From positions 1 to 64,000 of the forward strand of contig JAPKZA010000277.1 of the NCBI GenBank assembly GCA_026394015.1: a DNA stretch of 64,000 nucleotides, written 5' to 3'. Below the pieces are notes generated by a model. The model was not told where the DNA came from and made no database searches. It saw only the letters and a program-made list of their open reading frames with translations. The DNA is from Acidobacteriota bacterium (GTDB taxonomy: Bacteria; Acidobacteriota; Terriglobia; Bryobacterales; Bryobacteraceae). Shown here one piece after another: positions 58,201 through 62,108 of this stretch (positions are counted from its first letter, which is position 1; each line of letters begins with the position of its first letter). The translations under genes and the position numbers were made by a program.

Positions 58201-58435
58201 CCTGCTAGACCCCTGGTGGAACCCGGCCGTCGAGGCGCAGGCCATCGACCGAACCCATCGGATTGGCCAGGACAAGCCCGTCTTCGCTTACCGTCTCATC
58301 GCCAAGGACACGGTGGAGGAGCGAGTCCTCGAACTCCAAAACTCCAAGCGCGAACTCGCCACCGCCATCCTCAGCGAAGACAACGCCCTCGTCTCCAAGC
58401 TCCAGCCCGAAGACCTTGCCCTACTGCTCTCGTAG
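55226..58435 (+). CDS. SNF2-family helicase with N-terminal SWIM zinc finger
   Basis: A 1069-residue DNA-dependent ATPase. A SWIM zinc finger lies at residues 66-79 (Cys66, Cys68, Cys77, His79). A long middle region of unknown fold runs to about 600. The SNF2 motor follows: DDMGVGKTAQ Walker A near 636, the DEAQ box near 735 (AILDEAQAIKN), MTGTPVENHLGELWSLFEF, then the C-terminal helicase half with LISLKAGGVGLNLTAADYVF and the motif VI IDRTHRIGQ near 1010. This SWIM-SNF2 layout is that of the bacterial HepA/RapA-like group, which may remodel RNA polymerase or DNA complexes. Confidence 0.92.
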   Translation: MAIKSLIDKLAPFFDADARTKGWEYVRNHRITIRQGSKFAVKAIALGTQEYRVTIRIDGTDLYFYCGCEAFRKDGPCKHLWATAVDAERLGYLTDIRWTNLDLSLIEAQGPDDLPGEAVLPNWRLYLRDIDAKASVTPQRRVEPRPEDEQILYFVDPLDTLRNGRAISLQILARTPNQKGGGWNRTYPLRLSLEQLQEMADPSDDREILLSLAGSRGVLSTYATYPAEEIYTNYELSPALGLRLLPLLCASGRCFLKSPNSEERSLTQPLTWDPDPFGFRLLWQQGGDGSWQISSEFFREDEMLALDGSTLIVAGSFLLRRRAIGPLRAVNSIPWIQFFRSQGQISVSANEIDDFLRESIKRLPEEVLHLPLALRYERVDGTPHPAIKLRQAQRRADQDPFTGRPEFTYAPGLVASAEAKSDALFHPSERKIVRRDLAAEAAALALLPEAGFRPVQYVGVEGQSRKLFQAGWYIELQGLPMRSATRMNATVSTGIDWFELTGEVHFDDFSVPLPELLKAMSQGETMFKLEDGSIAILDEAQLNRLRGLLHLAELEKGQVRFKRNQVALLDALLLAQPDIKADETLEHARRELQNFRGVGPAPQPPGFIGTLRDYQLEGLGWLLFLNKFHFGGCLADDMGVGKTAQVLALLEMRRTARAAGEAIPPSLVVAPRSLIFNWQREAARFTPELRTLDFTGLARSLDDIEQYDVIFTTYGTLRRDIPTLQEITFDYAILDEAQAIKNFGSSSAKAARLIKANHRLTMTGTPVENHLGELWSLFEFLNPGMLGHASVLKLSGAGSRTVAPETRDLLAAGLRPFLLRRTKEQVAKELPAKIEQTLFCELDADERKLYNELRDHYRASLLSGTSRTWNKSKLQVLEALLRLRQASCHPGLIDKKRAAGSSAKLDTLLSQLDEVLQEGHKALIFSQFTSLLALVRTQLDAQGLTYEYLDGKTKDRQAPVERFQTDPDCKLFLISLKAGGVGLNLTAADYVFLLDPWWNPAVEAQAIDRTHRIGQDKPVFAYRLIAKDTVEERVLELQNSKRELATAILSEDNALVSKLQPEDLALLLS

Positions 58436-58450
58436 CCACGCTATCGCGGG

Positions 58451-59158
58451 TTACGGCTTGTGCCGCTGCGATGCGTAGTATTTCTCGTCCTGCCTCGCCC
58501 AGCCAGCCTGCAGACCCGCTGGTGCATCTTTGTTGTAGCGGACTTGATGAGTTTCCCCTTGCATCTGCGAAGGGGCCATTTCAAGATACTCATCAGGAAT
58601 CTGAAACAGTCACCATCCGGGTCACCCATTCGAATTGCTACAGGTACTTTTTCTGTCCGAGCGATAACTTCGCGGTTCTGGTTTAACTTTTCCGCCACGA
58701 TGCGAACCTCTGCGCACCGCAAATCCGGGGCCAGCCATTGCGTGAGTTTCAACAGTTGTGATCCCAGTTTACTCTTGGACTCGTAGACCAAGGCGCGAAC
58801 CCCCAGAACGATCTCTTCTCGAACCGGTTTCTCATTCGGGTTTGAGGCGCAATCGGCCCGCTTCGTGTTTCGCTGAATCTCTAGGCGTTCACTCTCGGCG
58901 AAGTATCGAGTTGACTTCGTCTTGTCAGGATCAGAAATCACTACGTTCTTTCCGGACGAGATATCAACGACCTGCCGCGACATTACTTCACCACCGAAAG
59001 CCCTGGAATGCGCAGTCGACCCATCGCTCTGACAATTCAACGGTAAACGATGATCGCTGAGTGCTAGGCACCTGAGCAGACGCCACCAAGCCGGACTTTG
59101 CGACGACAAAGCCTGCCACTGAAAGTACTAACGCGCCGAACCACTGTGAGTTTTTCAT
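58451..59158 (-). pseudogene. Frameshifted relic of an exported protein
   Basis: Minus strand. ATG 59158 follows AAGGAG and opens a signal peptide (NSQWFGALVLSVAGFVVA) and a mature start, but this frame stops after 56 codons. A second frame then encodes a continuous protein-like stretch (QSDGSTAHSRAFGGEVMSRQ, VVDISSGKNVVISDPDKTKS, REEIVLGVRALVYESKSKLG). Just after GDPDGD the sense moves to a third frame (LFQIPDEYLEMAPSQMQGE, ending in RQDEKYYASQRHKP and TAA at 58453-58451). Two frameshifts in one gene indicate decay or sequence errors. It would be an exported soluble protein; I do not recognise the family. Confidence 0.65.
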
Positions 59159-59189
59159 AGCTAACCAACTCCTTACTTAATAGTTAAGG

Positions 59190-59525
59190 CTACATGCACG
59201 AACCGGAAGTACATGGGCAGTTATTGAAATTGCATGCCTAGATGAAGCTGACGCAACTGATTAAATTGATTGCCTCAGGGCCGTAACGCGGACATGACTC
59301 ACTGATTCCGCCACATCGCCCTACTGGGCAAATGATTTCCGGTGGCCCAACCGGGTCACCGGTGCATCCATGGCTATCGCAAGTGCAATCCTCGAAAGAG
59401 TTACAACCAGTTCTGCACGCTCCAGCACTGAACGCCGGGCACGTAGATTAAGCACTTACTATGTCGACTTAGCATGATACGACCCCGACGAGAAGCGCCA
59501 TAGCATAGGTTACGAATTTGTTCAT
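59190..59525 (-). pseudogene. Cys-rich exported peptide gene interrupted by in-frame stops
   Basis: Minus strand, a single frame of 112 codons from ATG 59525 (AGGAG 7 bases upstream) to TAG 59192-59190. It reads as a signal peptide (MNKFVTYAMALLVGVVSC), then TAA, six codons, TAA, then a Cys-dense stretch (CPAFSAGACRTGCNSFEDC, CDSHGCTGDPVGPPEIICP, CGGISESCPRYGPE), TAG, and ACNFNNCPCTSGSCM before the last stop. The frame encodes 15 Cys in all, 14 of them after the signal peptide and spread on both sides of the third internal stop, so the frame itself looks ancestral. Each internal stop is one C-to-T change from a Gln codon. It lies 31 bases upstream of the other relic. Confidence 0.55.
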
Positions 59526-59694
59526 TGAGTGACTCCTATCTTTGAACTAACAGCCCGAGTATGCCCTTGGGGCCTGCCGAAGTCGCGATATTTGCCGACT
59601 TAGCGCTTTTGTTTACGTGGGAGTCGAAACCTCAGCGCGCCAAGCAAACCCGCCTCCAGGGTATACCTACCTCTACTGCTTTCTTAAAATTCGG

Positions 59695-59706: not shown

Positions 59707-60948
59707 ATGCAGCTTTCCCGCCGCGAACTCCTCTCCGCCGCCGCCCTGCCCTGGGCTCCCAGCCGTCCCAAAATCGCCGCCATCATCACCGAGTACCGCA
59801 AACACTCCCACGGCCAACACATCGTGGACCGCTTCCTCGAAGGCTACGGCTGGGACGGCGAACACCACCATCCCAATATGGACCTCGTCTCCCTCTACGT
59901 TGACCAGCGTCCCAACGGCGACCTCACCCCCGACCGCGCCGCTCGCTTCCCCGGTATGAAGGTCTATCCCACCATCGCCGAAGCCCTCACCGCCGGCACC
60001 TCCAAGCTCGCCGTCGACGGCGTCATGCTCGTCGGCGAACATGGCCGCTACGCCCGCAACGAAAAAGGCCAAACCAAGTACCCCCGCTACGAGTTCTTCA
60101 AGGAAATCGTCAAGGTCTTCGAAGCCAGTAATCGCGTCGTCCCCGTCTTCAACGACAAGCACCTATCCTGGAACTGGGACTGGGCAAAGGAGATGTACGA
60201 CACCTCCCGCCGCATGAAGTTCCCCCTCATGGCCGGCTCCAGCCTCCCCGTCACCTGGCGCACCCCGTCGCTCGAATTCCCCACCGGGGCCCGCGTCGAA
60301 GAAGCCATGTGCGTCTGCTACGGCGGCGTCGATAGCTACGACTTCCACGGCCTCGAAACCATCCAGGGCATGGTCGAACGCCGCAAGGGTGGCGAGTCCG
60401 GCGTCGAATGGGTGCAAGCTTATCGGGGCGCCGAGTTCTGGGCCGCCTACAAAGACAAAGTCTGGCCCACCGAACTCGTCGAAGCCGCCCTCTGCCGCAG
60501 CCATACGCTCGTCCCCGCCCGCGAAGGTTTCAACGATATCTTCCCCACCGTCGACGACATGAAGCGCCTCGTGAAGGACCCCGTCGCCTATCGCTACAAG
60601 CACTCCGACGGCCTCATGTCCACCATGATCCTGATGAGCGGACTCATCCGCGACTTCAACTTCTCCGCTCGCCTCACTGGCCAGAAGGACCTGTTCTCCA
60701 CGCAGATGTACCTCCCCATGCCCGATGGCCGGACGACGCTCGCCAACTTCTTCAGCCCCCTCGTCTACAACTCTGAGCTGATGTACCTCACCGGCAAAGA
60801 GACCTACCCGCTCGAACGGACGCTGCTCACGACCGGCCTCACCGCCGCCGGGGTTGAAAGCCTGCACATCGGCCAAAAGCGCTTCGCGACGCCCCATCTC
60901 AATATCCGCTACCAAGCCACGAAAGAGTCCACGTTCTGGAGGTCCTAA
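59707..60948 (+). CDS. Conserved-looking Tat-exported protein of unknown function, paralogue A
   Basis: A 413-residue protein. The N-terminus MQLSRRELLSAAALPWAPS has a twin-arginine-like SRRELL motif. The body starts IAAIITEYRKHSHGQHIVDR and contains VDGVMLVGEHGRYARNEKGQ, VPVFNDKHLSWNWDWAKEMY, MAGSSLPVTWRTPSLEFP and a final RFATPHLNIRY. The neighbouring gene at 60948 shares all of these blocks in order, so the two are paralogues of one family I cannot name. The conserved Glu-His-Gly and Asn-Asp-Lys-His sites look catalytic or metal-binding. It overlaps the next gene by one base (TAATG). Confidence 0.75.
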   Translation: MQLSRRELLSAAALPWAPSRPKIAAIITEYRKHSHGQHIVDRFLEGYGWDGEHHHPNMDLVSLYVDQRPNGDLTPDRAARFPGMKVYPTIAEALTAGTSKLAVDGVMLVGEHGRYARNEKGQTKYPRYEFFKEIVKVFEASNRVVPVFNDKHLSWNWDWAKEMYDTSRRMKFPLMAGSSLPVTWRTPSLEFPTGARVEEAMCVCYGGVDSYDFHGLETIQGMVERRKGGESGVEWVQAYRGAEFWAAYKDKVWPTELVEAALCRSHTLVPAREGFNDIFPTVDDMKRLVKDPVAYRYKHSDGLMSTMILMSGLIRDFNFSARLTGQKDLFSTQMYLPMPDGRTTLANFFSPLVYNSELMYLTGKETYPLERTLLTTGLTAAGVESLHIGQKRFATPHLNIRYQATKESTFWRS

Positions 60949-62108
60949 TGAAGCGCATCGCCGTCGTCACCACCATCTATAAGTACCTTTCCCACGCCCA
61001 GCACATGGCGGACCGCTTCCTCGTCGGCTACCCGCACGAAGGCCGCTGGCACAAGCCGGACATGCAAATCGTCTCGCTCTACGTCGACCAAAAACCCACC
61101 GGCGACCAGAGCCAGGCCCGCGCCACCGAGTTCGGCTTTAAGGTCTATCCCACCATCGCCGAAGCGCTCCGCTGCGGGACTGACAAGCTCGCCGTCGATG
61201 CCGTCCTGATCATCGGCGAACACGGCGACTACCCGAAAAACGAGCTCGGCCAGGTCCTCTACCCGCGCCACGAATTCTTCAAGCAGTGCGTCGAGGTCTT
61301 CGATAAGGACGGCCGCGCCGTTCCTGTCTACAACGACAAACACCTCTCCTACAGCTTCGAAAAAGCCAAGTGGATGCTCGACCAAGGCAAGCGCCTGAAG
61401 TTCCCCATCCTCGCCGGCTCCAGCCTCCCCGTCACCTGGCGCCTCCCCGATATTGAGATTCCCCTCGGCAGCCAGATCGACGAAGCGCTGATGGTCGGCG
61501 TCGGCGGTTCCGACCCGATGGACTACCATGCCCTCGAAGCCATGCAGTGCATGATCGAACGTCGCAAGGGCGGCGAGACCGGCGTCAAGTCCGTCCAACT
61601 GCTCGAAGGCGAAGCCGCCTGGAACGCGCCCTATTCGAAGGAGCTTCTCATCGCCGCCCTCTCCCGCAGCGATACGCCCAAGGGCCTCACCGAGAAGGAT
61701 GGCCGCACCCAGAACCTGGTCGCCAGCGGCGAACTGCGCAAGCTCGTCCCGAAGCCAGCGGCCTATCTCATTGAGCGCAACGACGGCTTGAAGACTACCC
61801 TGCTCATGCTCAATGGAGCCGTCCAGGATTACACGTTCGCAGCCAGGGTCCGCGGTAAAGGAATCCTATCCACGCAGTTCTTCCTCACCCCGGTCCCGAA
61901 CGTCACCTACTCGGCCTGCCTGGTTAGTAAGATCGAGGAGATGTTTGCCACCGGCCGCGCGCCCTACCCCGCGGCCCGCACGCTCATCGTCTCCGGCATG
62001 CTCGAAAGCTGTCTGCAGTCGAAGGCCAAAGGCAGCCAACTGCTCTCGACGCCGCACCTCAGCGTTCGCTACAACGCCCCCACCAAAAGCCAGCACGCCC
62101 AGCGCTAA
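60948..62108 (+). CDS. Protein of unknown function, paralogue B (no export signal)
   Basis: A 386-residue paralogue of the preceding protein without the twin-arginine leader: it starts MKRIAVVTTIYKYLSHAQHM. Conserved blocks in the same order: GFKVYPTIAEALRCGTDKLA, VDAVLIIGEHGDYPKNELGQ, VPVYNDKHLSYSFEKAKWML, LAGSSLPVTWRLPDIEIPLG, MIERRKGGETGVKSVQLLEG and LLSTPHLSVRY. A cytoplasmic and an exported form thus appear to be made from one operon. The overall pattern resembles an oxidoreductase or hydrolase, but no known cofactor motif is certain. Confidence 0.75.
   Translation: MKRIAVVTTIYKYLSHAQHMADRFLVGYPHEGRWHKPDMQIVSLYVDQKPTGDQSQARATEFGFKVYPTIAEALRCGTDKLAVDAVLIIGEHGDYPKNELGQVLYPRHEFFKQCVEVFDKDGRAVPVYNDKHLSYSFEKAKWMLDQGKRLKFPILAGSSLPVTWRLPDIEIPLGSQIDEALMVGVGGSDPMDYHALEAMQCMIERRKGGETGVKSVQLLEGEAAWNAPYSKELLIAALSRSDTPKGLTEKDGRTQNLVASGELRKLVPKPAAYLIERNDGLKTTLLMLNGAVQDYTFAARVRGKGILSTQFFLTPVPNVTYSACLVSKIEEMFATGRAPYPAARTLIVSGMLESCLQSKAKGSQLLSTPHLSVRYNAPTKSQHAQR

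What the first reader, a model, noticed from the sequence alone, without database searches (positions are those of the whole stretch)
59190..59525. Cys-rich exported peptide frame with three in-frame stops but no frameshift
One minus-strand frame of 112 codons keeps a good Shine-Dalgarno, a signal peptide and 15 encoded Cys (14 after the signal peptide), yet contains TAA, TAA and TAG. Cys-rich sequence lies on both sides of the TAG. All three stops are one C-to-T step from Gln codons. The relic may represent a family of secreted disulfide-rich peptides not usually annotated because of size. Recoding at the stops is possible but less likely than decay.
Basis: partly seen in the sequence, partly recalled or inferred. 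Interest (0 to 1): 0.55.

Follow-up and report, generated by a model that had tools for sequence, protein, structure and literature searches.

The report
Broken copy of a cysteine-rich peptide pair
The frame with three stop codons is the decayed remnant of a small exported, cysteine-rich peptide gene that, in related soil bacteria, sits intact just before a second exported protein; this two-gene unit matches no family in the libraries searched and may be a toxin-and-protection type pair.

Summary
In detail: 59190-59525 (-) is a 112-codon frame with Shine-Dalgarno, signal-peptide-like start, 15 Cys and three in-frame stops, and it is not chance. Just downstream lies a second broken gene (59158-58451, -), split by two frameshifts; its pieces match a profile of 26 intact proteins (3e-22 and 6e-11 in a three-frame search). 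Those proteins have a predicted LolA/RseB-type fold. In 32 sampled genomes I read an intact, Cys-rich, exported-looking peptide upstream of such a partner. One (G651) is a clear homologue of the relic, another (G444) a likely one. The finding is a decayed two-gene cassette, inserted between genes that abut in four same-genus genomes. Recoding is unlikely: both genes are broken, and other broken peptide genes carry TAA, TAG and TGA at scattered places. By my reading peptide genes are broken in 11 of 47 cassettes, partners in 0 of 46. I infer a toxin/immunity-like pair (about 0.4). The main rival is a carrier/cargo pair.

The parts
59190..59525 (-). relic of the Cys-rich exported peptide gene; in-frame stops at 59471-59469, 59450-59448 and 59240-59238
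   Evidence: homologues
59533..59537 (-). Shine-Dalgarno AGGAG of the peptide gene
   Evidence: read by eye
58451..59158 (-). relic of the partner gene (LolA/RseB-fold family): N-terminal piece 58994-59158, middle piece about 58588-59037, C-terminal piece about 58451-58609; two frameshifts
   Evidence: the N-terminal piece alone matches only weakly (2.6 bits)
59169..59174 (-). Shine-Dalgarno AAGGAG of the partner gene
   Evidence: read by eye
58436..59672 (.). inserted stretch that carries both relics; absent between the flanking genes in G008, G009, G015 and G017
58421..58435 (.). left copy of an imperfect 15-bp direct repeat (12 of 15 identical) at the insert ends, in the 3' end of the SNF2-type gene
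   Evidence: compared by eye
59673..59687 (.). right copy of that repeat
   Evidence: compared by eye

Best explanation
The locus is a decayed copy of a two-gene cassette. Gene 1 encodes an exported Cys-rich peptide of about 90-125 aa, gene 2 an exported protein of about 250-280 aa with a predicted LolA/RseB-like fold. Shown: the relic peptide has an intact homologue in its frame; the second gene is a relic of the partner family with two frameshifts; the stretch is absent between the same flanking genes in four relatives; intact cassettes have the same gene order. Inferred, at about 0.4: the peptide is a secreted disulfide-rich toxin against other bacteria and the partner is its periplasmic protector, which binds it in the half-barrel that LolA-type proteins use for hydrophobic ligands. 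That would explain why peptide genes die while partners stay sound, why partners without a peptide gene are common, and why the peptides are so diverse. In this genome both genes have since decayed, so the stops are ordinary nonsense mutations.
For: Partner relic: E 3e-22 and 6e-11 to 26 intact partners without the window (search space of three frames), 2.8e-16 to another 22 in the genome search. Peptide homologue in G651: 0 of 1000 Cys-fixed shuffles. Order peptide-partner: 35 intact cassettes with both genes seen; by a crude script, 23 of 39 partner entries (at least two duplicates) against 10 of 185 control genes have a frame with 7 or more Cys upstream. Five of six peptide places found anew by the peptide profile lie just upstream of a listed partner match. 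Insert absent in four relatives. Peptide genes broken 11 of 47, partners 0 of 46 (Fisher p 0.0003). dN/dS of two partner pairs with one broken peptide each 0.17 and 0.22; mature peptide of the G498/G499 pair 0.02. G235 keeps the partner while the stretch holding the peptide in its relative G274 is missing. Cys number even in 26 of 35 peptides, p 0.003. Fold.
Against: The general peptide profile does not recognise the relic (-5.9 bits; mature part -8.7, reached by 588 of 2000 full and 1221 of 2000 Cys-fixed shuffles), and 8 of 10 peptides compared with it singly are clearly within shuffles (G481 is borderline, 16 of 1000). G651's partner is not the closest partner to the relic's. No toxicity or binding was tested. 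The search went by partner hits, which favours sound partners; peptide status was read by eye; some partner matches end early, so a late break could be missed. Pair dN/dS averages over both lineages. TM-scores to LolA are modest (0.32-0.46 by query). Many distant partners have no Cys-rich frame upstream, so the partner also works, or once worked, without a peptide.
Confidence: 0.8

Rival explanations
1. Same decayed cassette, but the partner is a dedicated LolA-like periplasmic carrier or folding helper of the peptide, which is a secreted effector or structural peptide and not a toxin against other bacteria.
For: LolA, LolB and RseB/MucB lead the fold matches; strict gene order; strong constraint on the mature peptide in the one pair measured.
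Against: A carrier should decay once its cargo is gone, yet partners stay sound beside 11 broken peptide genes and many partners have no Cys-rich frame upstream.
Confidence: 0.3
2. Recoding: the stops are read through, giving a functional peptide.
For: The frame stays Cys-rich across the stops; SD and start are kept. Three other stops or relic stops follow a Cys codon (window first stop, L101, L204).
Against: The partner gene is broken by two frameshifts; stop codons in the family's broken peptide genes are TGA, TAG, TAG, TAA and TAA at different places; 36 peptide genes need no recoding; six others are broken by frame changes.
Confidence: 0.03
3. Assembly or sequencing errors in a metagenome-type assembly made the stops and frameshifts.
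For: The genome is in 574 contigs and was given no name.
Against: Three stops and two frameshifts lie within about 1.1 kb, while the flanking 1069-aa and 413-aa genes are open, the latter 95-97% identical to the two nearest relatives.
Confidence: 0.04
4. The partner is a sensor of the RseB/MucB kind and the peptide its exported signal.
For: RseB and MucB are among the fold matches; AraC-like or sigma-like genes lie upstream in some loci (names recalled).
Against: No regulator or anti-sigma gene recurs in more than two of 20 neighbourhoods by BLAST.
Confidence: 0.1

Closest known systems
LolA/LolB carriers and RseB/MucB (LolA-fold superfamily); Pfam DUF4412 (PF14371)
   Same: Predicted fold of the partner: best Foldseek E 9.9e-9 to LolA, VIA Z 12.0 to LolA and 10.7 to RseB and MucB. 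DUF4412 touches the C-terminal part of one of 22 partners at E 0.021, below its cut-off.
   Different: No sequence-level membership; two nearly invariant Cys and a W-x-AP-x-L-x-C motif; lies behind a Cys-rich peptide gene.
Bacterial cis-defensins (PMC11561630; passages seen)
   Same: Small, exported, Cys-rich bacterial peptides; the paper lists one from Acidobacteria.
   Different: Only 1 of 35 peptides fits the paper's Cys pattern, the relic does not; no partner gene is mentioned in the passages seen.
Polymorphic toxin/immunity and bacteriocin/immunity pairs (recalled)
   Same: Effector gene first, second gene behind it; diverse and patchy; effector lost while second gene is kept.
   Different: No toxicity shown; no known toxin or immunity family matched.

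Membership tests
Bacterial cis-defensins | Cys pattern CX(2,18)CX(3)CX(2,12)CX(4,17)CXC | tested here: not met
   1 of 35 intact peptides fits; the relic does not
LolA-fold superfamily (partner) | unclosed beta-barrel fold | tested here: met
   AlphaFold2 model of the G008 partner, pLDDT 78.7 from 6 sequences; LolA E 9.9e-9, Z 12.0; query TM-scores modest, 0.32-0.46 for the LolA rows
LolA proper (lipoprotein carrier) | carries lipoproteins from LolCDE to LolB | not testable with these tools
   no functional data; no sequence family match
Pfam DUF4412 | score above the curated cut-off | tested here: not met
   15.1 against 21.6 bits in one of 22 partners
Toxin/immunity pair | first gene harms cells and second protects | not testable with these tools
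   only the decay pattern speaks to it
Toxin/immunity pair | fixed adjacent gene order, peptide gene first | tested here: met
   35 intact cassettes with both genes seen, all in this order, selected by looking upstream of partners; control
Recoded gene | same stop codon at a conserved place in homologues | tested here: not met
   homologues G651 and G444 have no stop there; other broken genes have different stops at different places

The most novel reading that the evidence does not exclude
An uncatalogued arms-race system of Acidobacteriota: hypervariable disulfide-rich exported peptide toxins, each with a LolA-fold periplasmic immunity protein, spreading as two-gene cassettes into variable sites and decaying toxin first.
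Probability: 0.35. Interest if true: 0.8.

Novelty: new variant of a known kind. Interest (0 to 1): 0.6.

Why it matters
The partner family is found in 51 of 237 sampled genomes of the window's family at E 1e-15, with or without a peptide gene, yet neither gene matches a curated family above its cut-off. If the pair works as inferred, it is a source of disulfide-rich bacterial peptides too short and variable for family libraries, and a direct test of whether a LolA-type fold can serve as a protector. At the least, it shows that the three-stop frame is an ordinary pseudogene of a real family.

Tried and rejected
Searching with the relic itself gave only weak hits (best E 0.012 outside the genome) in 60 relatives. 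The profile of intact peptides gave no signal for the relic. The thought that stops after Cys might be selenocysteine was dropped when the codons proved to be TAA, TGA and TAA. The peptide model has low confidence, pLDDT 56, and was not searched. Plasmid and phage collections: no match to the G008 partner at 0.01. PADLOC: none of 22 partners. PDB by sequence: no match to the peptide profile at E 1. More relatives of the G651 peptide: three weak hits besides itself in 247 genomes, not followed. The partner tree is star-like, 4 of 35 inner branches well supported, so no line of descent is claimed.

Literature: three searches listed no paper that I recognised, from titles and abstract starts, as describing this pair; only passages of PMC11561630 were seen. 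Subscription papers and preprints were not searched.

Counts: the Fisher test printed used a guessed broken partner; replace it. Seven loci of unclear peptide status (L055, L060, the third copy in L172, L173, L175, L176, L195) were left out of the 47. G008 is counted as intact though no ATG stands at the expected start. The G121:C32 peptide has no partner on its contig, hence 46 partners. A1, used, contained the joined window partner; A9 and the 26-row profile did not. Two of the 14 training peptides (G073:C95, G128) were not recovered by their own profile, and only the best candidates of each genome were scored, so the counts of genomes are lower bounds.

Full report
Observation. The frame is real: minus strand, ATG at 59525, 111 residues and stops plus a final TAG, 15 Cys, TAA at codons 19 and 26, TAG at codon 96, and AGGAG 7 bases before the start. 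It is the only one of 1540 ATG frames in the window with at least 14 Cys per 111 codons and at most 3 stops; 0 of 3000 dinucleotide shuffles match it; 9 of 7497 frames in 20 comparison neighbourhoods do, part of them real Cys-rich proteins.

The neighbour. Just downstream, an ORF from 59158 begins with a signal-peptide-like stretch and soon loses its frame. Joined across frames by eye, it found distant relatives in 5 of 60 relatives at E 0.1. In G008, of the same genus, the relative is intact (255 aa) and lies behind a Cys-rich exported-looking peptide frame. The same order was then seen in G105 and G121 and in many loci found with a partner profile in 53 of 399 genomes of the class, own genome included. 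A profile of the first 14 peptides found 18 places in 14 of 399 genomes: 12 are training peptides, and of six new ones five lie just upstream of a listed partner match; the sixth, G121:C32, lies near a contig end. In 20 neighbourhoods only these two families recur in more than two loci: partner in 17, peptide in 9 by BLAST. As a crude control, 23 of 39 partner entries (at least two duplicates) and 10 of 185 other genes have an upstream frame with 7 or more Cys; the script missed some known peptides.

The partner relic. A profile of 26 intact partners, without the window, matches the relic in two frames: positions 68-209 (E 3e-22) and 193-256 (E 6e-11), plus a weak N-terminal piece in the second of these frames (three frames searched). 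So the partner gene runs 59158-58451 and has two frameshifts, near 59.0 kb and 58.6 kb. Another profile of 22 intact partners gives 2.8e-16 in the genome search.

The peptide relic. It is not recognised by the general peptide profile; the peptides are extremely diverse. The intact peptide before the partner of G651, from another class of the phylum, is a clear homologue: score 108, Cys-fixed shuffles 42.8 +/- 9.1, 0 of 1000; BLAST E 1.6e-7 without and 0.002 with composition correction. G444's peptide aligns over the whole length: score 86, 13 of 2000 Cys-fixed shuffles reach it, BLAST 5e-5 without correction and not listed with it. Of ten peptides compared, eight are within shuffles and G481 is borderline. 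The second stop sits, by eye, where Gln often follows the signal peptide (17 of 35 by script; the two scripts count slightly different rules), but computed alignments do not place a Gln there, and G444 has Gln at none of the three. Decay of assorted codons is therefore the simpler reading.

Insertion. In G008, G009, G015 and G017 the SNF2-type gene and the 413-aa gene abut with no cassette: window 58434 joins about 59673. G001 has about 790 bases of other sequence there. In the other 13 genomes of the genus the SNF2-type gene was not found in the fetched flank. In G011 and G012 the sequence upstream of the 413-aa gene encodes an ATPase-like frame (motif recalled), in G016 another gene. The window insert is flanked by an imperfect 15-bp repeat and has GC 52% against 62% for the rest; 15 of 20 other cassettes are also lower than their flanks. 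In the genus only G000 and G008 of 19 genomes match the 22-row profile at 1e-15; G005 and G011 hold weak relatives without a Cys-rich peptide seen upstream.

Decay pattern. Reading by eye, 36 peptide frames are intact and 11 broken: five by a stop (L083 TAG, L088 second copy TAG, L101 TGA, L146 TAA, L204 TAA) and six by frame changes (L064, L066, L093 first copy, L105, L107, L149). Seven unclear loci were set aside. None of the 46 partners checked shows an internal stop or frame change within the matched part, apart from stops in the last two matched residues of four; Fisher p 0.0003. The search by partner favours sound partners. Two partner pairs in which one peptide is broken have dN/dS 0.17 (G184) and 0.22 (G275), averages over both lineages. 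G235 keeps a partner 88% identical in DNA to that of G274, but lacks the stretch that holds the peptide in G274. In G498/G499 the intact mature peptide has dN/dS 0.02, its signal peptide 0.37, the partner 0.15: one pair only. Cys number is even in 26 of 35 peptides (p 0.003), as expected for disulfides.

Fold and families. The G008 partner is modelled at pLDDT 78.7 from six sequences as an all-beta protein; Foldseek and VIA put it with LolA, LolB, RseB/MucB and ependymin-related proteins, with modest query TM-scores. Scans: 23 peptides against Pfam (best 0.057) and NCBIfam (one at 0.0048 to a hypothetical protein), 22 partners against Pfam (best DUF4412 0.021, below cut-off), five partners against NCBIfam (none).

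Spread. Class draw: 53 of 399 at 1e-6; family: 51 of 237 at 1e-15; phylum draw: four of 395 genomes besides the window's own, all from other classes. Named records with cassettes: JAIXQP010000053.1, JADLBD010000282.1, JAPKYZ010000048.1 and QHZK01000071.1.

Reading. The window holds a dead copy of an accessory two-gene cassette. A diverse, disulfide-rich exported peptide whose gene dies first, and a partner that outlives it, is what a toxin and its protector would leave behind. That step is inference; a carrier role is the main rival.

Noticed in passing
window 58421-58435 and 59673-59687: Imperfect 15-bp direct repeat at the two ends of the insert; the right copy resembles the 3' end of the SNF2-type gene in relatives with the empty site.
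   Followed up: partly
L114, L116, L117, L118 upstream of the 413-aa gene: The spot before the 413-aa gene differs between genomes of the genus: ATPase-like frames, other genes or nothing; it may be a small insertion hot spot.
   Followed up: partly
L098 2895-3257, L103 10377-10799; upstream frames of L099 and L145: AraC-like DNA-binding frames (name recalled) just upstream of some cassettes; a sigma-factor-like gene lies upstream in L024.
   Followed up: no
L106 from 2581 (+); L104 (-) upstream of the cassette: Other Cys-rich proteins near cassettes: an exported-looking one with 15 or more Cys in L106, and a 176-aa one with 36 Cys in repeats in L104/L061.
   Followed up: no
window 59707-60948 and 60948-62108 (+): Two tandem paralogues (about 48% identical) of a family with several copies in most genomes of the genus.
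   Followed up: no
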